A stretch of 64,000 nucleotides of DNA from Prosthecobacter sp. Its GTDB lineage: Bacteria > Verrucomicrobiota > Verrucomicrobiia > Verrucomicrobiales > Verrucomicrobiaceae. The translations under genes and the position numbers were made by a program. The DNA lies in NCBI GenBank assembly GCA_021733925.1, contig JAIPJY010000036.1, forward strand, positions 1 to 64,000, in the 5' to 3' direction. Under the pieces are notes generated by a model that did no database searches, was not told the DNA's origin, and saw only the letters and a program-made list of their open reading frames with translations. This document shows, piece by piece, positions 11,760-47,221 of the stretch (positions are counted from its first letter, which is position 1; each line of letters starts with the position of its first letter).

Positions 11760-11780
11760 CTGGTTCCCTGACCAGACCAG
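11760..11780 (+). promoter_or_regulatory. operator palindrome 1 (CTGGT-N11-ACCAG)
   Basis: Exact CTGGT-N11-ACCAG, extended by flanking G and C to GCTGGT...ACCAGC. It ends 46 nt before the ATG of the Gfo/Idh operon at 11827. The same palindrome occurs at 16416, 28254, 34283, 45117 and, with one mismatch, 47201. It is the inferred site of the regulator encoded at 45138-46223. Confidence 0.75.
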
Positions 11781-11826
11781 CTCATTTCCCTTTGATCAGA
11801 TCTGGCGCGACGTTTACTCCGCCCTC

Positions 11827-12816
11827 ATGCATTCCATCCTCATCATCGGCTGCGGCAGCATCGGCGAGCGACATCTGCGCTGCTTTCAGCAGACCGTCCG
11901 CTGCCGCGTCAGCGTCTGTGATGCCAATGCAAAACTGCTGAGCGAGGTCAGCCAACGCTACAACGTCCCATCGTTCAGCACCCTCGCGGAAGCGGCACAC
12001 TCACAGCACTTCGACGCCTGGGTCATCTGCACGCCTGCCCACACTCATCTCACCATCGCCCGCGAAGGCGCAGCCCATGGCGCGGCTCTGCTCATCGAAA
12101 AGCCCCTCTCAGTCACGCTGGACGGCCTGGAAGAAACGCGCACTGCCCTCACCACCAGCGCCCGCTTTGTTGCCGTCGCCTACGTGTACCACTGCTTCCC
12201 TTGGATCATCGCGGCACGTGAGTTTTTACAAACCGGCACCTTGGGCAAACCTCTGCACGCCAGCGTCGTTGCCGGCCAGCACTTCCCCACCTTCCGCCCT
12301 GCCTATCGCGACATCTACTACGCACGCCACGAAACCGGCGGCGGCGCCATCCAGGATGCTCTCACTCACATCGTGAACGCCATGGAATGGATGATCGGCC
12401 CCATGACCCGCGTCTTTTGTGATGCCGCACATCAGCAGCTCGAAGGCGTCACCGTCGAAGACACCGTCAATGTCACCGCCCGCCACGGCAGCGTTCTTGC
12501 CAGCTACGCCATGACCCAGTTTCAGGCCGTCAACGAAGCCATCTTCGAAATTCACTGCGAACACGGCAGCCTGAAAATCGAATCCCACGCCCAGCGCTGG
12601 GCCAGCATGAAACGCGGCGAAACCACCTGGACCTGGAACACCACTCCACCTTTGGAGCGTGATGACCTCTTCATCGCCCAAGCCAATGCCTTCCTCGATG
12701 GCATGGAGGGCAAGCCCTGCAATCTGAGCACCTTTGACGAAGCCGTGCAAACCCTGCGCTTCAATCGTGCCGCCCTCGACTCCGCCGCCACCGGCCTGCC
12801 CATCACCCTTTCATGA
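11827..12816 (+). CDS. Gfo/Idh/MocA family oxidoreductase
   Basis: 329 aa. The N-terminal Rossmann fold shows LIIGCGSIGERHLRCF at residues 4-19. VICTPAHTHL and LIEKPLS near residue 90 carry the usual Pro and the EKP lysine that contacts nicotinamide. The C-terminal substrate domain includes ETGGGAIQDALTHIVNAMEW, where Asp/His are the likely catalytic pair. The family interconverts hydroxy and keto groups of sugars, inositols or sugar acids with NAD(P). It is first gene of a four-gene operon, overlapping the next gene by 4 nt (ATGA), and lies behind operator 1. The exact substrate is unknown. Confidence 0.9.
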   Translation: MHSILIIGCGSIGERHLRCFQQTVRCRVSVCDANAKLLSEVSQRYNVPSFSTLAEAAHSQHFDAWVICTPAHTHLTIAREGAAHGAALLIEKPLSVTLDGLEETRTALTTSARFVAVAYVYHCFPWIIAAREFLQTGTLGKPLHASVVAGQHFPTFRPAYRDIYYARHETGGGAIQDALTHIVNAMEWMIGPMTRVFCDAAHQQLEGVTVEDTVNVTARHGSVLASYAMTQFQAVNEAIFEIHCEHGSLKIESHAQRWASMKRGETTWTWNTTPPLERDDLFIAQANAFLDGMEGKPCNLSTFDEAVQTLRFNRAALDSAATGLPITLS

Positions 12817-13775
12817 GCAGCACTCCCAAACAGCTCCGCCTCGCCATGCTCGGCATGATCGAAGGCAACGGCCATCCCTATTCATGGAGCGCCATCATCA
12901 ATGGCTACGATCCCGCCGCCATGGCCGCATGCCCCTACCCGGGCATCATCGCCTATCTCGGTCAGCAGCCCTTGGCCACCATGCAGATCCCCGGTGCCCG
13001 CGTCACCCACCTCTGGACCGACGATCCCACCGACGCCCCCAAAGTCGCCGCCGCCAGCCTGATCCCCAACATCGTCGCTCAACCCGAAGACGTCATCGGC
13101 CAGGTCGATGCCGTAATCATCTCCACCGATGATGGCGACGATCACATCCGCCGCGCCCTCCCCTTCATTGAAGCCGGACTGCCCGTCTTCGTGGACAAGC
13201 CCATGGCCACCAACATCGCCGACCTCCGCCAGTTCGTGCAGTGGCATCGCGCCGGAGCCACCATCCTCTCCACCAGCGGCATGCGCTACGCGCCCGAGAT
13301 GCGCCTGACCGTAGAACAGCACACCCATCTCGGCGACCTCCGCTGGATCACCAGCTTCACCTGCAAAACCTGGGAACGCTACGGCATCCACGCCCTCGAA
13401 GCCATCGAGCCCCTCCTCGGCCCCGGCTTCCTCACCGTCCAGGCACTCAGCGATTCCGGCGGCGACGTCATGCACCTCACCCACCGCAGCGGCGTCCGCA
13501 TCACCATCGGTGCCATTCACGATGCCTACGGCAGCTTCGGTGCCGTCCATCTCTACGGTACAAAAGGCCAGCTCCCCCTCCGCCTCACCGACACCTACCA
13601 CGCCTTCCGCGGCCAGTTGGTCGCCTTCATCGACATGCTCCACACCGGCACCCGTCCCCTCCCCTTTGCCGAAACCGTTGAACTCATGGCCGTCATCATT
13701 GCCGGTCGCCGCAGCCGCGAACAAAGTGGCGCGCTAATGCAAATCTCAGACATTATTGCCGAATCCGACACATGA
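12813..13775 (+). CDS. Gfo/Idh/MocA family oxidoreductase (second, divergent)
   Basis: 320 aa. N-terminal blocks are atypical: LRLAMLGMIEGNGHPYSWSAIINGYDP replaces the canonical GxGxxG, but VDAVIISTDDGDDH, GLPVFVDKPMATN (the EKP equivalent is DKP) and a C-terminal alpha/beta domain support the family. This resembles the verrucomicrobial/planctomycete subgroup next to aldolases. The altered glycine motif could mean weak or altered cofactor binding. It overlaps both neighbours by 4 nt (ATGA), so the three are translationally coupled. Confidence 0.8.
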   Translation: MSSTPKQLRLAMLGMIEGNGHPYSWSAIINGYDPAAMAACPYPGIIAYLGQQPLATMQIPGARVTHLWTDDPTDAPKVAAASLIPNIVAQPEDVIGQVDAVIISTDDGDDHIRRALPFIEAGLPVFVDKPMATNIADLRQFVQWHRAGATILSTSGMRYAPEMRLTVEQHTHLGDLRWITSFTCKTWERYGIHALEAIEPLLGPGFLTVQALSDSGGDVMHLTHRSGVRITIGAIHDAYGSFGAVHLYGTKGQLPLRLTDTYHAFRGQLVAFIDMLHTGTRPLPFAETVELMAVIIAGRRSREQSGALMQISDIIAESDT

Positions 13776-14581
13776 AACTCCGCCCCTCCCGCATCCTCCG
13801 CGAACTCCGCGCCGGCCAAAACTGCACCGTCCTCAAACTCAACTTAGGAGATCCTCGCATCGTCGAACTCGCCGGACTCTCCGGAGCCAGCGCCGTCTGG
13901 CTCTGCAACGAGCACGTACCCAACTCCTGGCTCAATCTCGAACACCAGGTCCGCGCCGCCAAGCTCCACGATCTGGACACCATCGTCCGCGTCAACAAAG
14001 GCGGCTACAGCGAATACGTAAAACCCTTCGAATGCGATGCCACCGGCATCATGGTCCCCCACGTCACCAGCGCCGACGAAGCCCGCAACGTGGTGGACAT
14101 GGTCCGCTGCCGACCTCTCGGCAGCAAGGCTCTGGACGCCGGCAACATGGACGGCCTCTTCTGCCAGGTGCCCCTTGCGGACTACGCACATCACTGCAAC
14201 ACAGAGAAATTCGTCATCCTCCAAATCGAAAGCCCCGAAGCGCTCGAAGTCGTCGAAGAGATCGCCGCCGTTCCTGGATTCGACATGCTGCTCTTCGGTG
14301 CAGGTGATTTCAGCCACCGCATCGGCAAACTCGGCCAGGCCACCCATCCCGAAGTCGTCGCCGCCCGCAAGCGAGTAGCCGCCGCAGCACTCAAATACGG
14401 CAAATATCCCGCTGTTGCCTCCCTTTTCGGTCAGAAAGAGGAAGTCATCGCCGAAGGCACCCGCGTCTTCACCCTCGGTGCCGATGTGATCGAACTCGGC
14501 AACGCCTTCAAGAAACTGGTCGGTGACTTTGGCGGCTCTGATTCTGCAAATGGCAGTGATTCAATTTACAAATCCAAGTAA
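13772..14581 (+). CDS. HpcH/HpaI family aldolase
   Basis: 269 aa, within the usual 250-270. Conserved features are LKLNLGDPRIVELAGLSGASAVWLCNEH near the N-terminus, GIMVPHVTSADEARNVVDMVRCRPLG at about 90-115, [34 protein letters not shown] (metal-binding Glu and Asp around residues 150-175). The family are Mg/Mn-dependent class II aldolases releasing pyruvate or acetyl products from 2-keto-3-deoxy acids or related substrates. The typical catalytic His/Arg context is partly changed (LCNEH). A paralogue lies at 41162-41977. Coupled to the preceding gene and followed 5 nt later by an SDR. Confidence 0.85.
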   Translation: MKLRPSRILRELRAGQNCTVLKLNLGDPRIVELAGLSGASAVWLCNEHVPNSWLNLEHQVRAAKLHDLDTIVRVNKGGYSEYVKPFECDATGIMVPHVTSADEARNVVDMVRCRPLGSKALDAGNMDGLFCQVPLADYAHHCNTEKFVILQIESPEALEVVEEIAAVPGFDMLLFGAGDFSHRIGKLGQATHPEVVAARKRVAAAALKYGKYPAVASLFGQKEEVIAEGTRVFTLGADVIELGNAFKKLVGDFGGSDSANGSDSIYKSK

Positions 14582-14586
14582 GCATC

Positions 14587-15363
14587 ATGTCCGCCGATCT
14601 CTTCTCTCTCCAAGGCAAAACCATCCTCCTCACCGGGGGTGCAGGCCTCTATGGTCGTGGTCTGGCCGCCATGCTGGCGCAGACAGGTGCCACGCTGATC
14701 CTCGCCTCGCGTGATGTTGCCAAGCTGCAAGTCGTCGCCGGGGAAGAAACAGCCAAAGGCCACCGCGTGTTAGCCGAAACGCTGGATCAGGGGGATGAAT
14801 CCTCCGTGGTCGCACTGCATGAACGCATCACCGCGCAGCATGGTGCACTGCATGGTTTGGTGAACAACGCCGTGCTGCGTCCCATGAAAGGTGCGAATGG
14901 CACGGCGGAGCAATTTGCTGAATCCATGCGCGTCAATGCCACCGGCGTCATGCTCATGCACCGCCACTTTGGCCAGACCATGGCCGCCGCCGGACGCGGC
15001 AGCATTGTCAACATCGGCAGCATCCAGGGCATGATCGGCCCCAGCTACGAACTCTACACCGGCACCAACATGGGCGATATGCCGCCGGATTACTTCTTCC
15101 ACAAAGGCGGCATCGAAAACCTCACCCGCTTCTACGCCGCCCTCTATGGCCAGCAGGGAGTCCGCGTCAACAACCTCGCCGCCGGTGGCTTTTTCAACCA
15201 CCAGCCCGAGCCCTTTCTACAGCGCTACTGCGAGCACACCATGCTCGGCCGCATGGCCAGCGAATCCGATCTCGGCGGTGCCGTCATCTTCTTGCTCAGT
15301 GATGCATCTCAATACATCACCGGCGTCAATCTCCCCGTCGATGGTGGCTACACAGCTAAATAG
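14587..15363 (+). CDS. SDR-family oxidoreductase
   Basis: 258 aa. TGGAGLYGRGLAAMLAQTGA at residues 17-36 is the cofactor loop; NNAVLRPM replaces NNAG; NIGSIQG supplies the catalytic Ser and YFFHK the Tyr-x3-Lys. The ending GVNLPVDGGYTAK is typical. An insertion (LYTGTNMGDMPPD) just before the Tyr is shared with the SDR at 46368 (PMNPNPIE at the same place), so the two may belong to one subgroup. Last gene of the operon; it meets the minus-strand Kelch gene end to end with no spacer. Confidence 0.88.
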   Translation: MSADLFSLQGKTILLTGGAGLYGRGLAAMLAQTGATLILASRDVAKLQVVAGEETAKGHRVLAETLDQGDESSVVALHERITAQHGALHGLVNNAVLRPMKGANGTAEQFAESMRVNATGVMLMHRHFGQTMAAAGRGSIVNIGSIQGMIGPSYELYTGTNMGDMPPDYFFHKGGIENLTRFYAALYGQQGVRVNNLAAGGFFNHQPEPFLQRYCEHTMLGRMASESDLGGAVIFLLSDASQYITGVNLPVDGGYTAK

Positions 15364-16356
15364 TTACTTCAAAAGCTCCCCCACCGGAATGCGGAAGAAC
15401 TTGTCCGTGCGTGACTGCTTCTTGTCCTCACCACCGAGGCAATAGACAAAGTCGTCGAGCTTCACCAAACCCACCATCGCGGCATACGGCAGCGATTTCG
15501 CCTTTCGATAGCTGTCCGCCTTCACATCGTAGATCATGGCATCTGCCGTGAAGTCACTCGTGTAGCCTCCAGCGAGGTAAATGTGCTCCTCATCAACCGC
15601 CACCGCCACCATTCCACGATTTGCCACCGTGAGCGGCTTCAGCACACGCCATGCATTTTTGGCAGGCGCAAATGCATAGGCTTCCACGGAGTTCACCGGG
15701 GTGCTTGTCGTTGAATCATAGTTCATCCCTCCAAACACGAAGAGTTCATCCCCCACCACCGCCGATGCGGCCACGGCGAAAGGTTTGCCAGGATAGTCGG
15801 CCATCTTTTTCACCTGCATGCCACCGTTGCTAAACTCCACGGCATGCACGAAGCGCTGCACACCAGCGATGTTCGCCGCATCATCAATGCCTCCGACCAG
15901 GAAATCCTTGCCATTCACATTCCCCCCGGCAGCGAGCACGACTGCCGCCGGCAGTTCAGACAGTTGTATGCTGGTTTTGCTCCCTTCAATGACCTCGATC
16001 ATTTTCAGCGCCTGCTTGCCGTCGCTTCCGCCAATCCACGCAAAAGCCGCGCCCTGTTGAAATGCGGTCCCATAGGCCAGCGGATGGCTCAAATCCCGCA
16101 CCTTTGCCCAGTGAGCCGTTGCCGGATCAAAGGCGTGGATCGCCCGCAGCCAGAGCTTCTCTCCATCTTCCCAGTTGGTGCCTCCAGCGATGACGATCTT
16201 GCCATTCGCCGATCCGCAGATAAAGCCCCCATTCGGCTCCGGCAGCGGCGTCAGCGGCTCCCAGTCAGCGGCTTGCAAAGTGCCTATGAGTGACGAAAAC
16301 AGTACAAGCCCGGCATTCAGAACTCGGTTTATCATCGGGATCGGTCGTGCTTTCAT
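15364..16356 (-). CDS. secreted Kelch-repeat protein (N-acetylneuraminate epimerase/mutarotase-like)
   Basis: 330 aa. A signal peptide (MINRVLNAGLVLFSSLIGTLQA from ATG 16335, or 7 residues longer from 16356) precedes a six-bladed Kelch propeller. Repeated pairs such as GKIVIAGGTNWEDGEKLW, LFVFGGMNYDSTTSTPVNSVEAY, HIYLAGGYTSDF and VYCLGGEDKK mark the blades. Closest recognised class is the cyclically permuted mutarotase/NanM-type family, which equilibrates sugar anomers in the periplasm. It is divergent from the sodium symporter and shares the intergenic space with operator 2, so the two could be co-regulated. Assignment to the NanM group is tentative; the Kelch fold is clear. Confidence 0.8.
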   Translation of the reverse strand: MKARPIPMINRVLNAGLVLFSSLIGTLQAADWEPLTPLPEPNGGFICGSANGKIVIAGGTNWEDGEKLWLRAIHAFDPATAHWAKVRDLSHPLAYGTAFQQGAAFAWIGGSDGKQALKMIEVIEGSKTSIQLSELPAAVVLAAGGNVNGKDFLVGGIDDAANIAGVQRFVHAVEFSNGGMQVKKMADYPGKPFAVAASAVVGDELFVFGGMNYDSTTSTPVNSVEAYAFAPAKNAWRVLKPLTVANRGMVAVAVDEEHIYLAGGYTSDFTADAMIYDVKADSYRKAKSLPYAAMVGLVKLDDFVYCLGGEDKKQSRTDKFFRIPVGELLK

Positions 16357-16415: not shown

Positions 16416-16436
16416 CTGGTCATAAAAACGAACCAG
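16416..16436 (+). promoter_or_regulatory. operator palindrome 2 (CTGGT-N11-ACCAG)
   Basis: Exact palindrome, AT-rich spacer. It lies 56 nt upstream of the symporter ATG at 16493 and 59 nt from the divergent Kelch start at 16356, so one bound dimer could control both. Confidence 0.75.
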
Positions 16437-16492: not shown

Positions 16493-17989
16493 ATGACGCA
16501 CTTCTCCTGGCTCGATTACACCATCTTCGGCGGCTACCTCACGGCTTCGGTCACCGTTGGGCTGCTCTCGGCGCGCGGGTCCAGATCTCTCAGCGACTAC
16601 TTTCTCGCGGGTCGTGGCATGGGCAGCATCCTGGTGGGCATGTCGATTCTGGCGGCGTTGTTTTCCGGGATCAGCTTCCTCGCGGGTCCGGCGGATGTGT
16701 ACAAGAATGGATTTGGCTTTGCCTACATCATCCTGGCGTTCTTCATCGCCACACCGTTCACGGCGTTGTACATGCTGCCCCTGTTTTATCAGTCGCGATT
16801 CTTCACCGCCTATCAGTTTCTCGAAGAGCGCTTTTCACTCTCCGTGCGACTCCTTGCATCTGGATTGTTCATCTTTCGCGTCGCGCTCTGGCTGGCCGCC
16901 GCCACCTACGCACCCGCGCTGGCACTGGAAAAAGTGACGGGTATTCCGCTGTGGATCACCATTCTGGCCACGGGCACGCTGACCACTCTTTATACCGCAC
17001 TCGGTGGAATGCGGGCAGTCATCTGGACGGATGTGATGCAACTGATCGTGCTTTTTGGCGGCCAGTTGCTCATCGTCTTTGTAGCCGTGGGCAAGATCCC
17101 CGGCGGGCTCGGCGGCGTCTGGGACACAGCACTGGCGGATGGCCGCATGGACCTCAGCCTCTCTTTCAGCCTGTCAGAGCGCGTCAATCTGGGCTCCGTG
17201 CTGATTGCGGGGGCCTTTCTGCATCTGGTGCAGATGGCGACTGACCAAGTCTCGGTGCAGCGCTACCTCAGCGCGGGCAGTTTGCGGGAGGCGAAGCGCT
17301 CGCTGTGGCTCAAGCTGTGGTTCGTCCTGCCGGTGCTGGTGCTGTTTTATGGCACGGGCCTGGTGCTCTACGCATTCTACAAAACGCATGGCGACCCAAT
17401 GGCTGCGGGCTTGATTGCCAAGGAGGACCAAATTCTGCCCTATTTCGTCGTGACGCAGCTTCCATCCGGACTGCCCGGACTTCTCATCGCAGCGATCTAC
17501 GCGGCCAGCATGTCCACGATTTCCGCCGGGCTGAACTCCCTCGCCTCCGCCACGGTGGTCGATTTCAAGCAGCGCCTCTCAACCTCACCGGAGGGCACGC
17601 AGGCGCAGCAGGTCGGCAGCGCACGCTGGATCACGGTGATTTACGGAGTCATCGTCGTTGCACTGGCCTTTGCGGTGTCGTTCATGCCGGGAAATCTGGT
17701 CGAGTCGGTGAACACCGTCATCGGCCTCATTGGCGGGCCGCTGCTCGGGCTGTTCTTTCTGGGCATGTTCACGCAGCGGGCCACCACGCGCGGGGCGCTG
17801 CTGGGCTGCCTGGTGGGCTTTCTCACGCTGCTGGGGATCTTTATGTATCAAAACGGTGCTTTCACCGCAGAGAAGCCGCCCATGCTCGTCTCCTTCATCT
17901 GGTTCAGCCTGCTGGGCTCGCTGATCACCATGGCCGTCGGCCTGCTCACCTCCGGCCGATCTGCCCCGTCGTCAGCCCGCCATCAATGA
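16493..17989 (+). CDS. sodium:solute symporter family protein
   Basis: 498 aa from ATG 16493. Upstream in-frame codons cross the operator and are not used. About 13 hydrophobic segments begin with WLDYTIFGGYLTASVTVGLL. SSS-family marks are the SLSDYFLAGRGMGSILVGMSILAALFSGISFLAGPADVY region, TALGGMRAVIWTDVMQLIVLFGG in the middle, MATDQVSVQRYLSAGSLREAKRSL, and GLPGLLIAAIYAASMSTISAGLNSLASATVVDF. It resembles the multivitamin/iodide/monocarboxylate branch, whose members move organic acids or sugars with Na+. In this context it probably imports the substrate of the locus. Its 3' end overlaps the convergent SDR gene by 44 bp. Confidence 0.9.
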   Translation: MTHFSWLDYTIFGGYLTASVTVGLLSARGSRSLSDYFLAGRGMGSILVGMSILAALFSGISFLAGPADVYKNGFGFAYIILAFFIATPFTALYMLPLFYQSRFFTAYQFLEERFSLSVRLLASGLFIFRVALWLAAATYAPALALEKVTGIPLWITILATGTLTTLYTALGGMRAVIWTDVMQLIVLFGGQLLIVFVAVGKIPGGLGGVWDTALADGRMDLSLSFSLSERVNLGSVLIAGAFLHLVQMATDQVSVQRYLSAGSLREAKRSLWLKLWFVLPVLVLFYGTGLVLYAFYKTHGDPMAAGLIAKEDQILPYFVVTQLPSGLPGLLIAAIYAASMSTISAGLNSLASATVVDFKQRLSTSPEGTQAQQVGSARWITVIYGVIVVALAFAVSFMPGNLVESVNTVIGLIGGPLLGLFFLGMFTQRATTRGALLGCLVGFLTLLGIFMYQNGAFTAEKPPMLVSFIWFSLLGSLITMAVGLLTSGRSAPSSARHQ

Positions 17990-18707
17990 TGATGGTCTCG
18001 CCGGTGATGTAGCTGGCTGCGCCAGAGCACAGAAACACCGCCGCGCCTGCGACATCTTCAGGATCACCCAGGCGCTGGAGCAGGATTTTCTTCTCATAGT
18101 GCTCCACCATGCCGGGGTCGCTGCCATGGTGAAGTCCCGCCGTGAGCGGTGTCTTGATCAGACCTGGTGCCACGCCGTTCACACGGATGCCATGATCTGC
18201 CAGAGAAACGGCCAGCGACTTCGTCAGCATCACCAGCGCGCCTTTGCTGGCGTCATACGCAGCGGAATCCGCCTCCGCCTGAAAGCCGTTCGTGGAAGAC
18301 GTGATGACGATGCAGCCGCCACGTTTCTCAGCCACGAGACGTTTTGCAAAAGCCTGCGTCGCGAAAAACACGGACGCCATGTTGAGATTCACCGTCTTGT
18401 CCCATCGTTCCCGCGTCATCTCCAGAAACGCCACATCGAAAAAACTGCCTGCATTGCAGATGAGAGTGTCCAGGCCGGGCTCCAGGGCAAAGGCGGCCTC
18501 CACCAGACTCGCGGGCGCAGAGGGGGCGGACAGGTCAAAGGGGACGTAAGCGGCCCAGGCTGGGAAATCCACGGGACGTTCAGTGAGCCCATGGCATACG
18601 ACGCGGGCGCCGGACTCATGGAGACCCTTTGCCAACGCCAATCCAATGCCCTGCGATGATCCTGTCACCAATGCTGCCCGACCTTCAAGAGAGAATGCTT
18701 TCATCAT
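17946..18707 (-). CDS. SDR-family oxidoreductase
   Basis: 253 aa from ATG 18707 (or 18704). TGSSQGIGLALAKGLHESGARV is the cofactor loop, CNAGSFF replaces NNAG, ITSSTNG gives the catalytic Ser, YDASK the Tyr-Lys pair, and the end is YITGETIIIDGGLTTGQI. It is the last gene of the leftward operon that starts at 28209 and overlaps the amidohydrolase gene by 23 bp, which implies translational coupling. Probably oxidises a sugar or sugar-acid intermediate; substrate unknown. Confidence 0.9.
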   Translation of the reverse strand: MMKAFSLEGRAALVTGSSQGIGLALAKGLHESGARVVCHGLTERPVDFPAWAAYVPFDLSAPSAPASLVEAAFALEPGLDTLICNAGSFFDVAFLEMTRERWDKTVNLNMASVFFATQAFAKRLVAEKRGGCIVITSSTNGFQAEADSAAYDASKGALVMLTKSLAVSLADHGIRVNGVAPGLIKTPLTAGLHHGSDPGMVEHYEKKILLQRLGDPEDVAGAAVFLCSGAASYITGETIIIDGGLTTGQIGRR

Positions 18708-19659
18708 GCAGCTTCAAATAATCGCGGATGTTTGCGTTCGCAATGCGATCCACCATTTCTGTTCCGCCGGCCGTCAGCGCCTCCACCTCGGCCTTGTAGG
18801 TGCTGATGAGGCGCACGACCTCTCCGTTGATCTCTGCCGCGTAGCTGTAAAAGGGGGAATCACTGCCCCACATGAACTTTTTCGGATAGGCCGCCGCCAG
18901 ATCGGCGATCACCCGGGCGGGATTGGTGTAATCCGAGTCAAAGCGCCGCTCTTTCGGCGCGACATAGGGCAGCTCCTTCACCACGCCTTCGCAATGGATG
19001 CAGTGCGCGGAGTTGTCGAACCACGTATTTGGCAGCGCCTGCACGCGGTCGAGGCATTCCTTGTCATAGCGGCAGGAGTGCGCAAGGCAGAAGCGCACGT
19101 GCGGATTTTCCTCTGCAATGTCGAGGATGTCGTGTGCCTGGGCCCACAGGTCGCTCTTGGCCACGCTGGAGTGAATCAAAAACGGCACGTCCCACTCTGC
19201 GGCGAGTTCCACGAAGACCTTGCCACGATCCCGCAGGTGCTTGATGTCGGCCTGAAGGATGGTCGTTTGCATCTTGATGCCATGAAAGCGGTATTCGCCC
19301 TGCAGTTTGCGCAATTCCTCCGCCTGCGCCGCCGTGTTGCGCATGGGATCTGCCATCACAAACGGCAGCATGCGCCTCCCTTCCTCCGGAAACAGCTCAT
19401 AGCATTCCTTCATGAGACGGCGGTTTTCAAAGGCATACGGGATGTCCTGCAAACGCCCCTTCTCGTCCTTGATCTCATTTTGCATGAAGACAGTGACATC
19501 CAGCGCCAGATGACTGACGAAGGGGAAGACGATCCAGCGGTCCACCCCGAGTGCGCGGCCTTCGTCGTGCATGGTTACGAGGTGCTGGGCGTAGGGGAAG
19601 TCGCCGTGGAGGTAGAAGAGCAAGTCGGAGCCGACGTGGTTATGACAGTCAATGATCAT
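18685..19659 (-). CDS. amidohydrolase family protein (Amidohydro_2)
   Basis: 324 aa from the ATG giving MIIDCHNHVGSDLL; the 15 codons before it lack family similarity. The HxH metal site is HNHVG at residues 5-9, followed by FHGIKMQ, VPFLIHSSV (metal His), CLAHSCRYD (His), and FMWGSDSPFY, where the Asp is the catalytic/metal residue near the C-terminus. Members are TIM-barrel metal hydrolases, lactonases or decarboxylases. Lactonase activity would fit a sugar-oxidation pathway here. A second amidohydrolase domain is fused to an aminotransferase at 24410-26692. Confidence 0.85.
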   Translation of the reverse strand: MIIDCHNHVGSDLLFYLHGDFPYAQHLVTMHDEGRALGVDRWIVFPFVSHLALDVTVFMQNEIKDEKGRLQDIPYAFENRRLMKECYELFPEEGRRMLPFVMADPMRNTAAQAEELRKLQGEYRFHGIKMQTTILQADIKHLRDRGKVFVELAAEWDVPFLIHSSVAKSDLWAQAHDILDIAEENPHVRFCLAHSCRYDKECLDRVQALPNTWFDNSAHCIHCEGVVKELPYVAPKERRFDSDYTNPARVIADLAAAYPKKFMWGSDSPFYSYAAEINGEVVRLISTYKAEVEALTAGGTEMVDRIANANIRDYLKLHDESILS

Positions 19660-19705
19660 GGTTGTTATGCTTTGAGTTGGAAATACACACGCGGAGCATG
19701 CCATT

Positions 19706-22921: not shown

Positions 22922-22944
22922 ACAAGGCGAGGTATATTTCGCTG

Positions 22945-24333: not shown

Positions 24334-24409
24334 GATTAAACTCGGGTGTGAATTCCAATTGATTCTCCGGTGCAGCCACTCATTTGCCAGCAAAATCTCC
24401 GTTGGTCAG

Positions 24410-26692: not shown

Positions 26693-26697
26693 GGAGG

Positions 26698-34238: not shown

Positions 34239-34282
34239 GAGCAGAGTATGAATTCGCAGCCCTCCACCACCAGCGCAAGCAT

Positions 34283-34303: not shown

Positions 34304-34312
34304 GGCGGCTTT

Positions 34313-39762: not shown

Positions 39763-41133
39763 TCACGGCTTTTTGCCCAGCAGCTGCTGCATGGCTGAAG
39801 TGAGCACTTGCTCCACTTCGGGGGCGACGTTTGAAGATGTGGGGCCGGTTTCGTAGCCGCCTTCGGGGTAGGCGGCGGCGGTGCCGATGTAGCCGGGGCC
39901 GTAGTTGCCGTAGGCGGCCATCATGACGTGGAGATCGGGGCGCATGGCCTTGGCGGCGAGCTGGTATTCGACGAAGAGTTCGCCGGGGAGGTGCAGCATG
40001 CGTGAGTCACCCACCTGGAGGCAGGTGATGTCGATCTCGTGTCCGGCTTTGCTGCGGCGGACGAATGCGAGCTGGTCAGCACAAGAGATGTAGCCTTTGG
40101 GTGGTGTGGCTTTGAGCTTGGTGATCAGATCCTCTTCGTTGAGCCGGGGGGAGAGAGGCAGTTTCACGGGGACATTGCCCCAGCCGATATCGGCGGCTGC
40201 GAGCGGCAGCTTTTTGGTTTTGTCATAGGCTTCGCGCATGCCGGCGGCGAGACGGGTGGCGAGGATGACGCGGTTGCTTTGCGTGCCGTCGTTGTATTTG
40301 CCTGCAGCGACGTTGCCACCGGCGCCGTTAAAATGGACATGCAGTGCGGCGTTCACATCCTGCCCGCGAATGAAGCGTGCGATGCCGGGAAAATCCGGGC
40401 TTGGTATGCCGAGGCGGTAGTAGCTCTGCGGATGGCAGGCGTAGGCGCTGAGCACGGCGATGGGCTTGTCGCCGTTCCAAAAGCTGAGCAGGGAGACGAC
40501 GGGATCGATGAGGCCTTCGGGCAGGGAGATGAGGCCTTCGATTTTGCAAGCGCTGCCGCGCATGCGTCCGACCTTTCCTTCTGGGGTGCGCTCCACGCGG
40601 CGGTTTGAGGCGACTTCTTTGACCACGGCTTCGCCGTAGCCGTAGTGGGTGGCGGGCTGGGCATTGGGCAATGCGGTGCGAATGGCATCTGCTGCGCGCT
40701 GGATGACCTGGCGATGGAAGGTGCCTTCAAAGCGGGTGTAGCCTTTCACGCCGAGTTCCTGGATGAGTTTTTCTGCTGTGAAGTCGCAGCCGGGGGCATC
40801 ATGCTGGTGCAGGGTGTGCACGGCCACGCGGCCCGGCACGGTGCCTGCTGCCTCTGCGAGTGCGGAGCGAAAGGCATCGTGGCCTTCATTGGCGATGCCG
40901 ATCCAATCCACCGCGCAGAGCACGATGGGCTGTCCGCCGCCGAGGATGACGATGCCACGGCAGCGCAGGGTGAGATCATCCACGCGTTTCACCGGATAGT
41001 AGGCCATCGCGGCACCGAGCGGCGGTGTGGCATCCACATCGAAGGTGGCGATGCGCACGGGCTCGGCGGCATGTGCGGCATTCCACAAGCAGATGGGCGA
41101 AAGGAGAAACGCGAGAACGAGAAGGGCTTTCAT
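39763..41133 (-). CDS. secreted neutral/alkaline ceramidase-like (NEUT/ALK N-terminal) protein
   Basis: 456 aa from ATG 41133 with signal [20 protein letters not shown]. The upstream open frame is antisense to the aldolase gene. [18 protein letters not shown] is the typical start; [39 protein letters not shown] (zinc-type HxH), [12 protein letters not shown], and [18 protein letters not shown] follow. These features are standard for the ceramidase N-terminal family, whose Planctomycete/Verrucomicrobia members are often in carbohydrate clusters and may be amidases of other substrates. Last gene of the leftward unit that starts at 45070. Confidence 0.82.
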
Positions 41134-41161
41134 GATGACGAGATGAAACAAACGCGCCTTG

Positions 41162-41977
41162 TCAGTACGTCTTGCCCGTGGGGATGGCGGTCTGGCCGGA
41201 GATTTCGCTGAGCGCGCTGTCGAAGTCGGCGGCGCAGGCGCTGAGATGCGCGTGCAGTGCGCCGAATTCGCTGCCGAGCACGACGAACTGCGCGCCGAGT
41301 TCGATGATGGTTTTCGCATCTGCGGCGGAGCCCACGGGACGGCCCCAGGTTTTGCCGTGTTTGCGGCAGGCGGCGGCGATCTGTTTTTGAACATCGAGCA
41401 TCACGGGATCATTCACGGCGGGCGTGCAGCCGAGGCGCAAAGACATGTCTCCGGGGCCGAGAAAGAGGATGTCCACGCCGGGGACGGCGGCGATTTCTTC
41501 GGCATTGGCGAGAGCGGCAGGGGTTTCGATTTGCACGGTGAGGAAGGTCTCGCGATTGGCCTGCTCGATGTAGTCGTCGGGCTTGCCGATCCAGTAGTCG
41601 GCATCACGGCCGCCGCCGCAGAAGCCGCGATCGCCGAGGGGTGGGAATTTGATGGCGTTGACCAAGGCGCGGGCTTCATCCGCACTGCCGACGTGGGGGA
41701 TCATCAACCCGGCAGCACCGTCTTCGAGGAGACGGTAGAGGCTGTTTTTCTCCTTGGTGATCGGACGCCACATGCAGTCGATGTCCGCGGCGTGATGGCG
41801 GCCCAGCATGGTTTCGGCTTCACGCGGGTCCCATACTCGGTGCTCGGCATCGAGCCAGATGCCGTCGTATTTGAAATGCGCGGCGATGGCGGGGAAGAAG
41901 GCGATGGGCGAGCCGGTGCAGCAGATGCGGGCGACCTGGCCTGCACGGATTTTGGCGAGGACTTTGGAGCGTCTCAT
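41162..41977 (-). CDS. HpcH/HpaI family aldolase (second)
   Basis: 271 aa. [32 protein letters not shown] is the classic HpaI N-terminal block with the catalytic His. [43 protein letters not shown] follows the 2-keto-3-deoxy-L-rhamnonate/4-hydroxy-2-oxo-heptanedioate aldolase pattern. [36 protein letters not shown] carries the Mg-binding Glu and Asp. More canonical than the paralogue at 13772. Expected to cleave a 2-keto-3-deoxy sugar acid to pyruvate and an aldehyde. Confidence 0.88.
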
Positions 41978-41985
41978 AAATGGGG

Positions 41986-43185
41986 TCAGGGTTGATGTTG
42001 GGCGAGCCAGGTGGAGAGGATTTCGAGCAGCGGCGTGGTGTCAGCGGTGCGGCGTGTGATCATGGAAAGGTCCTGGGCTTTGATCAGGCGCAGCGCGAGC
42101 GCCTCGTGGCGGCTCTCTTCTGGGCTGAGTGCGGGTTTTGCCGCTGAGGGCAAGGCCACCACCACATCCCACTCCTGTACGCCAAAGCTGAGGGACCAGT
42201 TCATGATCCATGAATAATCGTGATGAAACTGCTGATGATCCTGCAAGGGGAGTTCAGCGGGCACGGCGATGATCACCAGATCCTGCGCCATGCTGCGCAC
42301 CTTGCGCGCAGAGGCCTCAAGCTGCGCGAGCGTCTGGCCAGCAATGGGCCAGGACGTGACCTTGACCTCGACCCCCGAATACAACTCCTGCAGTGCAGGT
42401 TTGATGAGTTCATCATACGGCGGCATGGCGAGCACCTGGATGGGCTGGCCGGCTTTGAGCTTTGTGAAGGTGTGCGAAAGTGCCGACGGGGGTGGGCCGA
42501 CTTCGCGGAGTGAAACGGTGCGGCCGGTGATGGCGTGGGCGATAGTTTCGGCGAAGAGTTTGTGACCGGCCATGTTGGGATGAATGGTATCGCTGAGGAG
42601 GAGATTCCATTCGGAGGCATCGGCGGCGTGCACGGCTTCGAATGCGGCGAAGCAGTCGGCCACGACGAGCGTCTCCTCTTTGGCCACGTCTCGAATGGCC
42701 TGGGTGAATTCGGTGAGACGGGCTGGGGGGCGCTGCGGAGTTTCGATGACGGAATTCTGCGTGCACAGCACTACCTCGGCTCCGCTTTTCTGGCAGCGAG
42801 TGATCATCTCGCGAAGGTTCTTTTTGAAGGTGTCCACAGGCGTCTTCACCAGATCATTCATGCCGAACATGATCGTCACGAGATGTGGCTTGTGAGAGAG
42901 CACGTCTCGCTCAAGGCGCTTGAGGCCGCCTGTGGTGGTGTCGCCACTGATGCCGGCATTGTGCACGCTGAGCTGAGTTTGGGGGTAGAGCTGCTGGAGA
43001 GCGAGCTGGAGCATTTCGGCATACGCGCGGCGGCCGCCGCTGTGATAATAGACGCCGGTGATGCTGTCGCCGATGCAGACGATGCGGACGGGTTCCTTGC
43101 CTGCGGCGAGCAAGGCTGCGGTTTTGAGCGGCGCTGCGGGAAGCAGGTTCGCGAAACAGAAGCAGAGGAGAATGAGTTTGCGCAT
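41986..43185 (-). CDS. secreted SGNH/GDSL hydrolase
   Basis: 399 aa, signal MRKLILLCFCFANLLPAA. Block I VCIGDSITGVYYHSGG (nucleophile Ser in GDSI near residue 40), block II NAGISGDTT, block III GMNDLV, and block V DTIHPNMAGH with Asp and His near 200-203. The C-terminal 150 residues (FTKLKAGQPIQVLAMPPYDELI) form an additional domain of unknown type. Probable esterase for acetylated or acylated saccharides. It follows the sialidase-like gene by 7 nt and shares its operon. Confidence 0.88.
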   Translation of the reverse strand: MRKLILLCFCFANLLPAAPLKTAALLAAGKEPVRIVCIGDSITGVYYHSGGRRAYAEMLQLALQQLYPQTQLSVHNAGISGDTTTGGLKRLERDVLSHKPHLVTIMFGMNDLVKTPVDTFKKNLREMITRCQKSGAEVVLCTQNSVIETPQRPPARLTEFTQAIRDVAKEETLVVADCFAAFEAVHAADASEWNLLLSDTIHPNMAGHKLFAETIAHAITGRTVSLREVGPPPSALSHTFTKLKAGQPIQVLAMPPYDELIKPALQELYSGVEVKVTSWPIAGQTLAQLEASARKVRSMAQDLVIIAVPAELPLQDHQQFHHDYSWIMNWSLSFGVQEWDVVVALPSAAKPALSPEESRHEALALRLIKAQDLSMITRRTADTTPLLEILSTWLAQHQP

Positions 43186-43192
43186 GGGAGGA

Positions 43193-44293
43193 TCAGGGTT
43201 GCTTCAGCCAGTCGAGGGTGATGCGGCGGATGCGCAGACGGTTGAGCGCCCCCACTTTGCTGTCGCCAGCGCAGTAGCCGATGAGCATGGCATCGCCGAC
43301 GAAATGAATGGCGGTGTAGTGGTAGAGGCCGTCGGGGTCGTTCTCGATGAGCTTGCGCTTGGGCCAGGTCTTGCCGCCGTCGGTGGAGATGGCCGCGACG
43401 AAGGGATTGCGCTTCTTGGGCGGGAACGGGAACATGCCGGAGTGGTCGTTGTAGATGGCAAGCAGGTCGTTGCTGCCGGGCAGGCGTTTGATGCTGGCGG
43501 GGCCGTTGGGAGATTTCATTTCCGTGGGCTCCGGTGGTGAGAATGTTTTGCCCGCGTCGGTGGAGAAGAAGCCGTACTGCGCGCCCTGATCGGTGCGGCA
43601 CCAGGAGAAGAGGCCGCCGTCTGCCAGTTCCACCACGCCGGGCTCCTGCAGGCCGCTGCCGCTGCGCACGGGCATGGCCCACCAGCTGGAAGATTCCGTC
43701 CAGGTGGCGCCTTCGTCATCGGAATAGATCCAGGTGGCAATGGCGCGTGCGTCCCAGGATTTGCTGGTGTTGGGATCGGTGCCGCGTGAGCGGTGGAAGG
43801 CCAGCGGGATGATGATGCGGCCCTTGCTGGTCTGGATGACGCGGTCGTTGTTCATCACGAAGTAACCGGGGGCCTGCTGCACGAGCTTGGGCTCGGTCCA
43901 AGTCTCGCCTTCATCTGTGGAGATGCGCATGTGCGGGCGGCAGTCGATCCAGCTGTTTTTGATGCAGTAAAACATGGCGAGCTTGCCGCTGGCGAGGCGC
44001 AGGAGGGAGACGCTCATCACATTGTCGCCGCCGGTGTTTTCCACCACGGTGACGGGCGGGCTCCAGGTGCGGCCCTGATCATCTGAATGAATGCGGACGA
44101 TGCGGGCGGGGCTCTCATCCCCCGCGCCGCCGTAAAAATGTGAGTAGCAGAAAATGATGCGACCGGAGGCGAGGGTAGCGAAGGAGCCTTCGGAGTTGCG
44201 CGGGTTCTCCTTGGTGGGATCAAGATTGAAAGTGATGATGCTTTCGGCGTGCGCCATGCAGGCGATGGCGAGACAGAGGGTGATGAGTTTCAT
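43193..44293 (-). CDS. secreted sialidase/exo-alpha-sialidase-like BNR protein
   Basis: 366 aa, signal MKLITLCLAIACMAHA. Asp-box (SxDxGxTW) copies are clear: SDDQGRTW, STDEGETW, SDDEGATW, STDAGKTF, STDGGKTW. They alternate with blades of a six-bladed propeller. The canonical arginine triad could not be assigned confidently, and many bacterial relatives lack sialidase activity. In this context it may be a hydrolase or a sugar-binding protein. It lies 15 nt downstream of the RraA-like gene. Confidence 0.85.
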   Translation of the reverse strand: MKLITLCLAIACMAHAESIITFNLDPTKENPRNSEGSFATLASGRIIFCYSHFYGGAGDESPARIVRIHSDDQGRTWSPPVTVVENTGGDNVMSVSLLRLASGKLAMFYCIKNSWIDCRPHMRISTDEGETWTEPKLVQQAPGYFVMNNDRVIQTSKGRIIIPLAFHRSRGTDPNTSKSWDARAIATWIYSDDEGATWTESSSWWAMPVRSGSGLQEPGVVELADGGLFSWCRTDQGAQYGFFSTDAGKTFSPPEPTEMKSPNGPASIKRLPGSNDLLAIYNDHSGMFPFPPKKRNPFVAAISTDGGKTWPKRKLIENDPDGLYHYTAIHFVGDAMLIGYCAGDSKVGALNRLRIRRITLDWLKQP

Positions 44294-44308
44294 GATGGCT
44301 GATTGGAG

Positions 44309-45070
44309 TTACCACTCGCCCTGGCGGGAGAACTGGCTTTTCACATTGGCGCTGAACTGGGTGATGCTGGCTTCGAGATTGGCGACGAGTTCGTCCGTGC
44401 TCAGGCCTGCTGCATTGCGCGCGGCGGGGATGACGGTGGCGCATTCATTGGCATCCATGAAGCGTGCGGCTTCGAGCAGCTTGGGCTGGTCTTCCTCGGG
44501 GATGACCATGAAGCCGTGTTTGTCGGCGTGGATGAGGTCATCCGGCTTGACGGTGCGACCAAAGACTTCCACCTCGCACCCCCAGCGCACGGGGTGTACA
44601 TGCGCATGGCCGACGCAGAGGCGACGGGCGAGCGCCTTAAAGCCCGCATTGGTCATTTCATCGAGATCACGAATGGCACCGTCGGTGATGGTTCCCACGC
44701 AGCCAAGCGCACGGAACATGTTGGCGCTTACCTCCCCCCAGGCGGAGCCGAGCACGCGGGGTTTGTCGAGATCTTGGACGACGATGATTTTCGGCCCGGG
44801 CACGCTGGCGATGTAGCGGCGGAACTCAGCACCGGCATTTGGATTTGTCTGGCGGTGTGCGGCGTTGGAGGGCTCGATGACGAGGGTGACGGCGTAGCCG
44901 ACCATGGGGCCCATCTGCGGCATAAAGTCGCGGGTTTCCTCGATGTTAAAGGCATCGGCACCAGCATTGTGCCGGGTGATCTGCTCCCAGCCGTTGTAGA
45001 TCGTGGGAGTGTTCCAGCGTTTGAGCTGGAGCAGGTCGCTGTGCGAAAGGTGGCGCGCGCTGTGAGACAT
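44309..45070 (-). CDS. RraA/4-hydroxy-4-methyl-2-oxoglutarate aldolase family protein
   Basis: 253 aa. GEVSANMFRALGCVGTITDGAIRDLDEM is the core RraA-fold motif, with the GxxxxDGxxRD Asp/Arg pair used for metal and oxaloacetate/HMG binding in aldolase members. RWGCEVEVFGRTVKPDDLIHADKHGFMVIPEE is the conserved C-terminal barrel edge. Family members are HMG/CHA aldolases or RNase E regulators; a metabolic aldolase role fits this operon. First gene of the leftward unit; its ATG is 46 nt from operator 5. Confidence 0.85.
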   Translation of the reverse strand: MSHSARHLSHSDLLQLKRWNTPTIYNGWEQITRHNAGADAFNIEETRDFMPQMGPMVGYAVTLVIEPSNAAHRQTNPNAGAEFRRYIASVPGPKIIVVQDLDKPRVLGSAWGEVSANMFRALGCVGTITDGAIRDLDEMTNAGFKALARRLCVGHAHVHPVRWGCEVEVFGRTVKPDDLIHADKHGFMVIPEEDQPKLLEAARFMDANECATVIPAARNAAGLSTDELVANLEASITQFSANVKSQFSRQGEW

Positions 45071-45116: not shown

Positions 45117-45137
45117 CTGGTCTGTTGTCCAAACCAG
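45117..45137. promoter_or_regulatory. operator palindrome 5 in the regulator/RraA divergent promoter
   Basis: Exact CTGGT-N11-ACCAG flanked by T and A to give TCTGGT...ACCAGA. Its right edge abuts the ATG (45138) of the regulator gene, and its left edge is 46 nt upstream of the RraA-like ATG (45070). Binding could thus block both genes. The spacer CTGTTGTCCAA is nearly the same as in operator 6. Confidence 0.75.
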
Positions 45138-46223
45138 ATGCAACCAGACACCACCTCCAGCCCCAGACTGCCACAACGCATCTCCCTGGTCACCTTGACC
45201 GCGCAGAGTCTGCGCGAGTCAATGCAGGCCGGTCACTGGCATGGCCATCTCCCAGGGGAGCGTGAGCTGTGCGCACGCCTGCAGGTGAGCCGCCACACCC
45301 TGCGCGCCGCACTGCATGAACTGGAGCGCGATGGCGTTCTGGAGGTCTCAGACAGACAGCGGCGGCGCATCAAGACCGACGTAAAAGCAGAGACAGCAGT
45401 GCATGACCGGGTGATCGCGCTCATCTCCCCCCGTCCGCTGCTGGAAATGTCCCCCTCGACGGTCGTGATGGTGGATGATCTGCGAGATCAGCTTTCCCGT
45501 GTCGGCTTCAGCTTTGAGATCCATGTGAGCACCGCGTGCTTTTCCTCCACGCCAGCGCGTGCGCTGGAGGCTCTGACCACCCGCTCTCCTGCGGCGGCAT
45601 GGCTGCTGTTTGGTTCGCTGGAGCCCGTTCAGAGCTGGTTCATGCGCCGCCAGCTTCCCTGCCTTGTGGTGGGCTCCTGCGCACCAGGCATGAACCTGCC
45701 TTCCATTGATGCCGACTACCGGGCGCTCTGCCGCCATGCAGGCGGCATGCTCAGTGGCAAAGGCCACCGTCACATCGCCTTCATACGCCCAGCCGGTGAT
45801 TACGGCGGCGACCTGCAGAGCGAACAAGGCCTGCGTGAGGCGCTCAGCGGCACCACCGCGCCCACCTTGCAGGTGATCCAGCATGATGGCACCGCAGCCC
45901 ATCTCTGCACACTGCTGGAAAAGGCGCTGCGCTCACCCCGGCCACCCACGGCCTACGTGGTCGCCCGCGCCATCCATGTGCTCACGGTGATGATGTTTCT
46001 CACGCAGCGTGGCAAACGCATCCCGCAGGACATCGCAGTGATCTCCCGGGATGACGAAACCTTTCTCCAGCACACGGTGCCTGCCATCACCCGCTATGCC
46101 GCAAACACCGGCCAGTTCGCCCGCAGCGTGTGCAAAGCCGCGCGTCAGCTCGCCGAGGCCGGCACTCTGCCACCCAAGGCGATTCGCCTGATGCCCAAAA
46201 TGATCCGTGGTGAAACGCTGTAA
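45138..46223 (+). CDS. GntR-type HTH, LacI-type sensor transcriptional regulator
   Basis: 361 aa from ATG 45138, placed directly after the operator; a start at 45069 would read through the operator and gives no family sequence. Residues about 15-78 are a GntR winged helix: LTAQSLRESMQAGHWHGHLPGERELCARLQVSRHTLRAALHELERDGVLEV. The rest is a periplasmic-binding-protein-like sensor of the LacI/AraR kind (MVDDLRDQLSRVGFSFEIHVS, GKGHRHIAFIRP, RGKRIPQDIAVISRDDE). This combination is common in sugar regulation. As the only regulator near the six palindromes, it is the likely binder, with a sugar intermediate as inducer (inference). No start-proximal Shine-Dalgarno is seen because the operator occupies that space, so the mRNA may be leaderless or the true start later. 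Confidence 0.85.
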   Translation: MQPDTTSSPRLPQRISLVTLTAQSLRESMQAGHWHGHLPGERELCARLQVSRHTLRAALHELERDGVLEVSDRQRRRIKTDVKAETAVHDRVIALISPRPLLEMSPSTVVMVDDLRDQLSRVGFSFEIHVSTACFSSTPARALEALTTRSPAAAWLLFGSLEPVQSWFMRRQLPCLVVGSCAPGMNLPSIDADYRALCRHAGGMLSGKGHRHIAFIRPAGDYGGDLQSEQGLREALSGTTAPTLQVIQHDGTAAHLCTLLEKALRSPRPPTAYVVARAIHVLTVMMFLTQRGKRIPQDIAVISRDDETFLQHTVPAITRYAANTGQFARSVCKAARQLAEAGTLPPKAIRLMPKMIRGETL

Positions 46224-46232
46224 AAAGCACTC

Positions 46233-46361: not shown

Positions 46362-46367
46362 GGGGCG

Positions 46368-47153
46368 TCACCAAGCCGTCCAGCCACCATCCACCGCCAG
46401 ATTCTGGCCGGTGATGAATGAGGACGCATCGCTGAGCAGGAAGGTCACCGCCCCGGCGATCTCATTCGCCTGCCCCACGCGGCCAAGCGGCACTTTTTGC
46501 GCGAGGCTTTCGACAAACTCGGGCTGCTGAAATTGAATCGTCGGGTTTGGAAACGGACCGGGCGAGAGGCTGTTGCAGCGCACGCCCTGCCTGCCCCAGT
46601 GCACGGCCAGGTAGCGCGCCATCTGCTGGATGCCCGCCTTGCCCACGCCATACTCGATGGGATTCGGGTTCATCGGCGCTGCATAGACGGCAGGGTCAGG
46701 CGAGACGCTGCCATACATGCTGGAGAACAGCACCATGCTGCCCCTTCCCCGCTCCGCCATGCGCTGGCCTGCGGCACGCGCGAGAGCGAAGGTGGCGGTG
46801 AGATTGCCGTGGTTCGCCATGTCAAAATCTTCGGCGGTGAGATCGTCAAAACGCTTGGCCGTTGAGGCATACGTCATCACCACCAGCCCATGCGGCACGC
46901 CATGCGCGGCGATCTGCTCTTTGACGAATTCCTCCACGGCGGCAATGTCGGCGGCGTTGAGTGAGGCCGCGCTTACCTGCGCCTCCAAGCCTGCGTTCCT
47001 GATCATCTCCGCAGCGCGCTCCGCCAAGTCCACGCATAGCACGCGGGCCTGCATCTCCGCCAGTTGCGCCACGACAGCAGCGCCGAGATAACCGGCGCCG
47101 CCAAAGACCCAGATGCTGCGTTCCTTGAGATCAAACGGATGAGGAGAGGACAT
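46368..47153 (-). CDS. SDR-family oxidoreductase
   Basis: 261 aa from ATG 47153. A TTG at 47165 is less likely. FGGAGYLGAAVVAQLAEMQARVLCVDLAERA is the cofactor region (Asp after strand 2 suggests NAD). VVMTYAST replaces NNAG; LFSSMYG gives the Ser; the catalytic site is IEYGVGK (Tyr-x3-Lys) after the PMNPNP insertion shared with the SDR at 14587. The ending FITGQNLAVDGGWTAW is typical. It stands alone, 47 nt from operator 6. Confidence 0.85.
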   Translation of the reverse strand: MSSPHPFDLKERSIWVFGGAGYLGAAVVAQLAEMQARVLCVDLAERAAEMIRNAGLEAQVSAASLNAADIAAVEEFVKEQIAAHGVPHGLVVMTYASTAKRFDDLTAEDFDMANHGNLTATFALARAAGQRMAERGRGSMVLFSSMYGSVSPDPAVYAAPMNPNPIEYGVGKAGIQQMARYLAVHWGRQGVRCNSLSPGPFPNPTIQFQQPEFVESLAQKVPLGRVGQANEIAGAVTFLLSDASSFITGQNLAVDGGWTAW

Positions 47154-47200
47154 GGGTGGCAACAAGGACTGCTCAAGCCACCGGGCTCAAGGCCGCGCTG

Positions 47201-47221
47201 CTGGTCTGTTGTCCATGCCAG
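47201..47221 (-). promoter_or_regulatory. operator palindrome 6 (one mismatch)
   Basis: CTGGT-N11-GCCAG differs from the consensus by one base. Its spacer CTGTTGTCCAT matches operator 5 in ten of eleven bases. It is 47 nt upstream of the SDR ATG at 47153. Confidence 0.65.

What the first reader, a model, noticed from the sequence alone, without database searches (positions are those of the whole stretch)
11760..47221. A six-site palindrome (CTGGT-N11-ACCAG) defines a probable catabolic regulon
Seen directly: exact CTGGT-N11-ACCAG at 11760-11780, 16416-16436, 28254-28274, 34283-34303 and 45117-45137, and one mismatch at 47201-47221. All six are intergenic and upstream of a start codon. The inner edge to ATG distance is 46, 56, 44, 44, 46 and 47 nt. 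A simple estimate with about 60% GC gives well under one exact site by chance in 64 kb. The genes behind the sites are sugar and sugar-acid enzymes, secreted glycan-active proteins and a symporter. Inference: the GntR-HTH/LacI-sensor protein at 45138-46223 binds the sites. I did not scan all coding sequence exhaustively.
Basis: partly seen in the sequence, partly recalled or inferred. Interest (0 to 1): 0.85.

Follow-up and report, generated by a model that had tools for sequence, protein, structure and literature searches.

The report
Operator code of a verrucomicrobial regulator
A short mirror-image DNA word in front of sugar-catabolism-like genes in a Prosthecobacter-like bacterium is very probably the docking site of the regulator encoded beside it, and the same docking geometry recurs in front of many relatives of that regulator.

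Summary
In detail: five exact CTGGT-N11-ACCAG sites and one 1-mismatch site, all between genes, 44-56 nt before start codons. The genome holds 19 exact copies against 9 for the reversed control; 12 of the 14 outside the window lie in genes or long open frames. In related genomes the site recurs before orthologues: Gfo/Idh 7 of 7, RraA-like 9 of 9, p26698 6 of 6, symporter 5 of 7, SDR 7 of 11 (5 at the usual distance), esterase 0 of 3. Strongest link to the regulator: among 133 homologues of the 45138-46223 protein, exact TGGT-N11-ACCA lies near the start of 69 of 82 (40% identity or more) and 13 of 51 (less); every other spacing reaches at most 2 per group. On the target side a -35-like TTG begins exactly 10 nt past the operator (16 of 44 flanks; rotated controls at most 6). 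I infer an operator locked upstream of the core promoter: probably target activation plus autorepression, but the sign is unproven. The regulator has the AraR-type GntR/LacI architecture with a much wider operator than AraR. Ligand and substrate are unknown. Interpretation supported; new variant of a known kind.

The parts
11760..11780 (+). operator 1, 46 nt before the Gfo/Idh gene at 11827
   Evidence: exact in 7 of 7 orthologous promoters
11827..15363 (+). run of two Gfo/Idh dehydrogenases, HpcH/HpaI aldolase and SDR behind operator 1
   Evidence: Pfam
16416..16436 (.). operator 2, between the SSF symporter (56 nt) and the Kelch/NanM-like gene (59 nt)
   Evidence: SSF 5 of 7, Kelch 4 of 5 orthologues
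15364..16356 (-). Kelch/NanM-like protein gene
16493..17989 (+). SSF sodium:solute symporter gene
28254..28274 (-). operator 3, 44 nt before p26698
   Evidence: 6 of 6 orthologues, 3 of them with one mismatch
17946..28209 (-). run behind operator 3: p26698 (no family), amidohydrolase/class-III aminotransferase, beta-helix, LamG, amidohydrolase, SDR; co-transcription inferred from gene order
34283..34303 (-). operator 4, 44 nt before the esterase gene start at 34238; not found at 3 of 3 orthologues
31722..34238 (-). M14/BD-FAE esterase gene behind operator 4
   Evidence: Pfam, on the longer frame 31722-34316
45117..45137 (.). operator 5, shared by the RraA-like gene (46 nt) and the regulator (0 nt)
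   Evidence: RraA side 9 of 9 orthologues
39763..45070 (-). run behind operator 5: RraA-like, BNR, GDSL, HpcH/HpaI, p39763
45138..46223 (+). GntR-HTH/LacI-sensor regulator (an upstream in-frame ATG at 45069 exists but overlaps the RraA start)
   Evidence: both Pfam domains over cut-off
47201..47221 (-). operator 6 (one mismatch), 47 nt before the SDR gene; a second one-mismatch register overlaps at 47206-47226
   Evidence: 7 of 11 orthologues, 5 of them at 47 nt, 2 at 98-101 nt beside the regulator
46368..47153 (-). SDR dehydrogenase gene behind operator 6

Best explanation
The palindrome TGGTY-N9-RACCA (CTGGT/ACCAG in this cluster) is the operator of the GntR/LacI chimera at 45138-46223. A dimer puts one GntR-type winged helix on each TGGT arm and its LacI-type domain senses a sugar- or sugar-acid-like ligand (inferred). 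The central operator serves two divergent promoters: on the regulator side it abuts the start codon and should repress the regulator's own gene (inferred); on the target side its edge lies 10 nt before a -35-like TTG, so it sits just upstream of the core promoter, centred near -55 if transcription starts near the ATG (inferred). From there I think it most likely activates the catabolic operons (about 0.5; repression from the same place about 0.4). Shown: sites, spacing, conservation, link to the regulator family, promoter phase. Inferred: binding, ligand, sign. The confidence given is for 'operator of this regulator', not for the sign.
For: Exact TGGT-N11-ACCA near the start of 69 of 82 and 13 of 51 homologues, every other spacing at most 2 in either group; 22 of 29 and 9 of 41 clusters at 70% identity, next best spacing 3 of 70. 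In 31 of 82 loci with a site the operator directly abuts a regulator start codon. Arms and distance kept before orthologous targets while the interior changes. Spacing 11 occurs 34 times in 17 regions, any other spacing at most 4. The 21 genomes with a close regulator hold 150 sites against 45 control, the other 47 hold 142 against 83. TTG at position 11 past the operator in 16 of 44 flanks, rotations at most 6. TGGT/ACCA with conserved GT and AC is the known half-site of FadR-type GntR proteins (passages).
Against: No binding or expression data. 13 of 82 close and 38 of 51 distant homologues lack an exact site. Operator 4 is not conserved (0 of 3), operator 6 in 7 of 11. Some genomes with a close regulator show no excess (G023 2 against 6, G065 8 against 9). 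The symporter promoter lacks the TTG phase, and the C66-type paralogues show a different flank. The rank test ignores relatedness. Start sites are not mapped.
Confidence: 0.87

Rival explanations
1. Same regulator and operator, but a plain repressor: bound upstream of -35 it hinders polymerase or another activator, and the ligand releases it, as for B. subtilis AraR.
For: AraR is a repressor released by arabinose (passages). Transcription starts are not mapped, so the operator might overlap a core promoter that I misplaced. A published exception exists in which CcpA represses from upstream of the promoter.
Against: A fixed 10-nt gap to a -35-like TTG in 16 of 44 flanks and in several unrelated target promoters is not needed for simple blocking; the CcpA rule links sites upstream of -35 with activation (passages).
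Confidence: 0.4
2. Another DNA-binding protein, for example a global regulator, uses the palindrome, and the neighbouring GntR/LacI gene is only one of its targets.
For: Binding by the local protein is untested, and one site would explain control of the regulator gene too.
Against: The site follows homologues of this one protein down to 31% identity, the genome-wide excess is stronger in genomes with a close regulator, and exact sites outside the cluster look like chance.
Confidence: 0.06
3. An RNA hairpin (CTGGT/ACCAG stem, 11-nt loop) in the leader acts after transcription.
For: The base outside TGGT changes symmetrically in 55 of 82 sites, as in a stem.
Against: 27 of 82 outer pairs are mixed and the four inner pairs do not vary by the way sites were selected; the inferred promoters lie downstream of the site on the target side; one site serves divergent genes.
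Confidence: 0.03
4. Chance or a dispersed repeat.
For: 12 of 14 exact copies elsewhere in the genome lie in genes or long frames; one recurrent hit in other genomes lies in 16S rRNA (one genome checked).
Against: Interiors differ between sites while spacing, distance and orthologous position are kept.
Confidence: 0.01

Closest known systems
AraR subfamily of GntR regulators (Bacillus subtilis AraR)
   Same: GntR winged helix at the N-terminus, GalR/LacI-type sensor at the C-terminus, control of sugar genes, own gene has an operator (passages of PMC4494728 and PMC4218819).
   Different: AraR operator At(T/A)tGTaCGTAcaa(A/T)T has 4 nt between GT and AC (my count); here 11, with TGGT arms.
FadR and HutC subfamilies of GntR
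   Same: TKGT/ACMA boxes (FadR), like the TGGT/ACCA arms here.
   Different: GT-to-AC distance 2-3 (FadR) or 4 (HutC); sensor domain is not LacI-type.
YtrA subfamily of GntR
   Same: Long operator with GT and AC far from the centre.
   Different: Short C-terminal domain, mostly ABC-transporter operons, divergent arrangement rare.
CcpA and other LacI-family regulators
   Same: LacI-type sensor (best PDB sequence matches of our protein are LacI-type sensors); CcpA sites upstream of -35 linked to activation (passages of PMC3463425).
   Different: LacI-type HTH rather than GntR; CcpA is global and uses cre boxes.

Membership tests
AraR subfamily (GntR/LacI chimera) | N-terminal GntR winged HTH | tested here: met
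   PF00392, 43.7 bits, cut-off 27
AraR subfamily (GntR/LacI chimera) | C-terminal GalR/LacI-type sensor domain | tested here: met
   PF13377, 73 bits, cut-off 26.5
AraR subfamily (GntR/LacI chimera) | AraR-type operator with GT-N4-AC | tested here: not met
   spacing is 11 in the six sites and in homologues; so it shares the architecture but is not AraR itself
AraR subfamily (GntR/LacI chimera) | arabinose as ligand, arabinose genes as targets | not tested
   no araA/B/D search was made; Pfam of the scanned cluster genes names other enzymes
FadR/HutC-type GntR | palindrome NyGTNxACNy with x of 2-4 | tested here: not met
   GT and AC present, x is 11
Comparative-genomics regulon | site conserved before orthologous genes in several genomes | tested here: met
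   five of six targets; esterase 0 of 3
Comparative-genomics regulon | regulator binds the site | not testable with these tools
   needs EMSA or footprint

The most novel reading that the evidence does not exclude
A branch of GntR/LacI chimeras spread through the verrucomicrobial class has fixed a wide N11 operator locked in phase to the core promoter, so that one bound dimer activates catabolic operons from about -55 while shutting its own nearly leaderless gene; paralogues diverged mainly in the sensor domain and the outer base pair of the operator.
Probability: 0.33. Interest if true: 0.62.

Novelty: new variant of a known kind. Interest (0 to 1): 0.47.

Why it matters
It gives a testable regulator-operator pair with a target list, in a lineage for which my six paper searches (open-licence papers only) listed no defined regulon of this type. 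The N11 rule and the place next to the start codon allow operators, and so target pathways, to be predicted for many uncharacterised paralogues. The wide spacing on ordinary GntR arms raises a clear structural question: how a LacI-type dimer sets the distance between two winged helices.

Tried and rejected
A genome-wide regulon: not supported. Of the 14 exact copies outside the window, 10 lie in called genes and 2 in open frames of 523 and 513 codons. One, on C66, is 40 nt before a gene but overlaps the end of the gene upstream and lacks the TTG phase; one near a contig edge has no confident gene.

The paralogue's GTGGT-type operator in this genome: no excess (1 against 2 control; its own site misses that stricter pattern).

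Recognition residues that follow the outer base: the top columns follow paralogue groups, so ancestry is not separated. Proteins with the same recognition helix (LQVSRRTLR) carry C, G or T outer bases. A wing position (RRRI against RRKI/RREI) looked suggestive by eye and was not tested.

Other LacI-type domains of the genome: 7 hits, two of them the regulator and its C66 paralogue. Of the other five loci I read N-termini of called genes and, for L139, the open frame (a LacI-type HTH by eye); I saw no further GntR/LacI chimera, but did not run Pfam on them.

Site counts in genomes without a close regulator are partly raised by a conserved 21-mer in 16S rRNA (rRNA confirmed in one genome, G013).

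Substrate: not named. Aldolase, RraA-like and symporter hits to specific NCBIfam models are below cut-off (only the general sodium/solute symporter model and enolase pass), and p26698 has no Pfam or NCBIfam match.

Limits: gene calls and later come from a simple codon score trained on window genes, so starts in other genomes are approximate. Regions were chosen around regulators. Tallies were copied by hand. Structure prediction and fold search were not run.

Full report
OBSERVATION. The genome has 19 exact copies against 9 for the reversed pattern. With Y after the first arm and R before the second it has 10 against 1; 5 of the 19, and 5 of these 10, are in the window. Of the 14 others, 10 lie in called genes, 2 in open frames of over 500 codons, 1 is 40 nt before a gene on C66, and 1 near a contig edge is unclear. 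So most real sites appear to be in this cluster.

GENES. Pfam: operator 1 leads two Gfo/Idh dehydrogenases, an HpcH/HpaI aldolase and an SDR. Operator 2 lies between an SSF symporter and a Kelch/NanM-like gene. Operator 3 leads p26698 (no family) and a run with amidohydrolase and class-III aminotransferase domains, beta-helix and LamG proteins and an SDR. Operator 4 leads an M14/BD-FAE esterase. Operator 5 lies between the regulator and an RraA-like, BNR, GDSL, HpcH/HpaI run. Operator 6 precedes an SDR. The APH-enolase-AKR-PhyH run (34313 to 39321 or 39450) starts after a gap of 312-441 nt with no site at up to two mismatches. NCBIfam models gave no specific name to the aldolases, the RraA-like protein or the symporter. 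'Sugar-acid catabolism' is inference from these families.

RELATIVES. The nearest named records that encode the regulator are Prosthecobacter and Verrucomicrobiaceae/Verrucomicrobia assemblies, up to 94% identity; records of the window's own genome may be left out there. One 83% match is a record named Akkermansia muciniphila. In the family 59 of 68 genomes have a homologue at E 1e-40; in a class sample, which includes some of these, 59 of 286. In the window and 16 regions of other genomes around close regulators, exact CTGGT-N11-ACCAG occurs 34 times, 31 intergenic; intergenic positions are 158,314 of 746,388. Among spacings 0-23 no other exceeds 4, and the everted order never exceeds 3.

ORTHOLOGOUS PROMOTERS (site with at most one mismatch within 130 nt upstream; orthologues of 55% identity or more with their start in the fetched regions). 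Gfo/Idh 7 of 7 (45-50 nt); RraA 9 of 9 (43-52); p26698 6 of 6 (44-45, three with one mismatch); SSF 5 of 7 (42-56); Kelch 4 of 5 (59-60, the site shared with SSF); SDR46368 7 of 11, of which 5 at 47 nt and 2 at 98-101 nt beside the regulator; esterase 0 of 3. Of 17 further genes of the cluster and neighbourhood, 15 had none; HpcH2 had 1 of 15 and BNR 3 of 14, at 89-97 nt. One search shows interiors changing while arms and distance stay.

LINK TO THE REGULATOR. Of 138 homologue loci I dropped 4 duplicates and 1 without its N-terminus and searched -200 to +60 of each start for exact TGGT-Nk-ACCA, k 1-21. k=11: 69 of 82 (identity 40% or more) and 13 of 51 (less); every other k at most 2 in either group. 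The lowest identity with a site is 31%. By clusters at 70% identity: 22 of 29 and 9 of 41, next best k 3 of 70. With one mismatch, -90 to +35: 76 of 82 and 20 of 51, next best 20 and 7. In 31 of the 82 loci with a site the operator abuts a regulator start codon; a divergent gene was called in 62, with its start at 43-49 nt in 27. The base outside TGGT is symmetric in 55 of 82 (CC 32, GG 15, TT 5, AA 3) and mixed in 27. The 21 genomes with a close regulator hold 150 sites against 45 control; the other 47 hold 142 against 83; rank test p 3e-7 for sites, 0.48 for control, ignoring relatedness. Against: G023 has 2 to 6 and G065 8 to 9.

PARALOGUE. The second copy in this genome (C66:93914-94966, 46% identity) is also divergent from an RraA-like gene, with GTGGT-N11-ACCAC 48 nt before it.

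PROMOTER PHASE. Reading outward from the operator on the side away from the regulator (homologues of 40% or more: 68 flanks, 44 after removing those at least 75% alike), TTG starts at position 11 in 16 and at no other position in more than 4. In 2000 random rotations the best position reached at most 6; at a stricter cut 9 of 28 against at most 2. In the window, positions 11-16 read TTTGAT (Gfo/Idh), CGAAAG (SSF), TCGCAA (p26698), TGGTGG (esterase), TTGTGA (RraA) and TTGAGC (SDR); SSF does not fit, and p26698 and the esterase only partly. Sequences resembling -10 lie near 33-39, a few nt before the ATG in several. I recall the sigma-70 consensus; it comes from no call. If this reading is right, transcripts are nearly leaderless and the operator centre is near -55. 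Divergent promoters of paralogues share ancestry, so they are not fully independent.

MECHANISM. Shown: location, spacing, conservation, regulator link, phase. Inferred: a dimer binds, it represses its own gene by covering the start region, and it acts on targets from just upstream of -35. For CcpA, another protein with a LacI-type sensor, sites upstream of -35 are described as activating, with exceptions (passages of PMC3463425). I put activation near 0.5 and repression near 0.4.

KNOWN SYSTEMS. The domain order is that of the AraR subfamily (passages of PMC4494728). The operator is not AraR-like: GT to AC is 4 nt in AraR (my count), 2-4 in FadR and HutC, 11 here. YtrA operators are also long (section 12 of PMC4494728). 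In six searches (20 of 32 listed; 37, none; 20 of 24; 3 of 3; 5 of 5; 10 of 16) I saw no title or abstract start that reports this operator or a verrucomicrobial GntR/LacI regulon. The word Verrucomicrobi does not occur in the main text of PMC4494728 or PMC4052901. I saw passages of PMC4494728, PMC4218819, PMC3463425, PMC3750489 and PMC4052901 and one section of the first; the rest only as listings.

VERDICT. A real, mainly local regulon with a conserved operator: observation confirmed, interpretation supported, new variant of a known kind. Sign, ligand and substrate stay open.

Noticed in passing
window 37082-38374: A second full enolase (529 bits, cut-off 300) in the cluster; the genome's other enolase on C109 scores 679 bits. 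Its role in a catabolic cluster is unexplained.
   Followed up: partly
L208:617-637 (G013 C21): CTGGTCTTAGAGGACGACCAG, an exact match to the operator consensus that recurs in many of the listed genomes, lies in 16S rRNA in the one genome checked.
   Followed up: yes
window 34313-39321: The APH-enolase-AKR-PhyH run has no operator-like site in its leading gap.
   Followed up: no
window 47201-47226: Operator 6 holds two overlapping one-mismatch registers 5 nt apart, also seen in G059 and, beside no called start, in G021.
   Followed up: no
L218: A record named Akkermansia muciniphila encodes an 83% identical regulator; possibly a misnamed assembly.
   Followed up: no
window 46258-46350: Repeated GAGCTAAAGCTCGG/GAGCTGAAGCTC palindromes between the regulator and the SDR gene (seen).
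   Followed up: no
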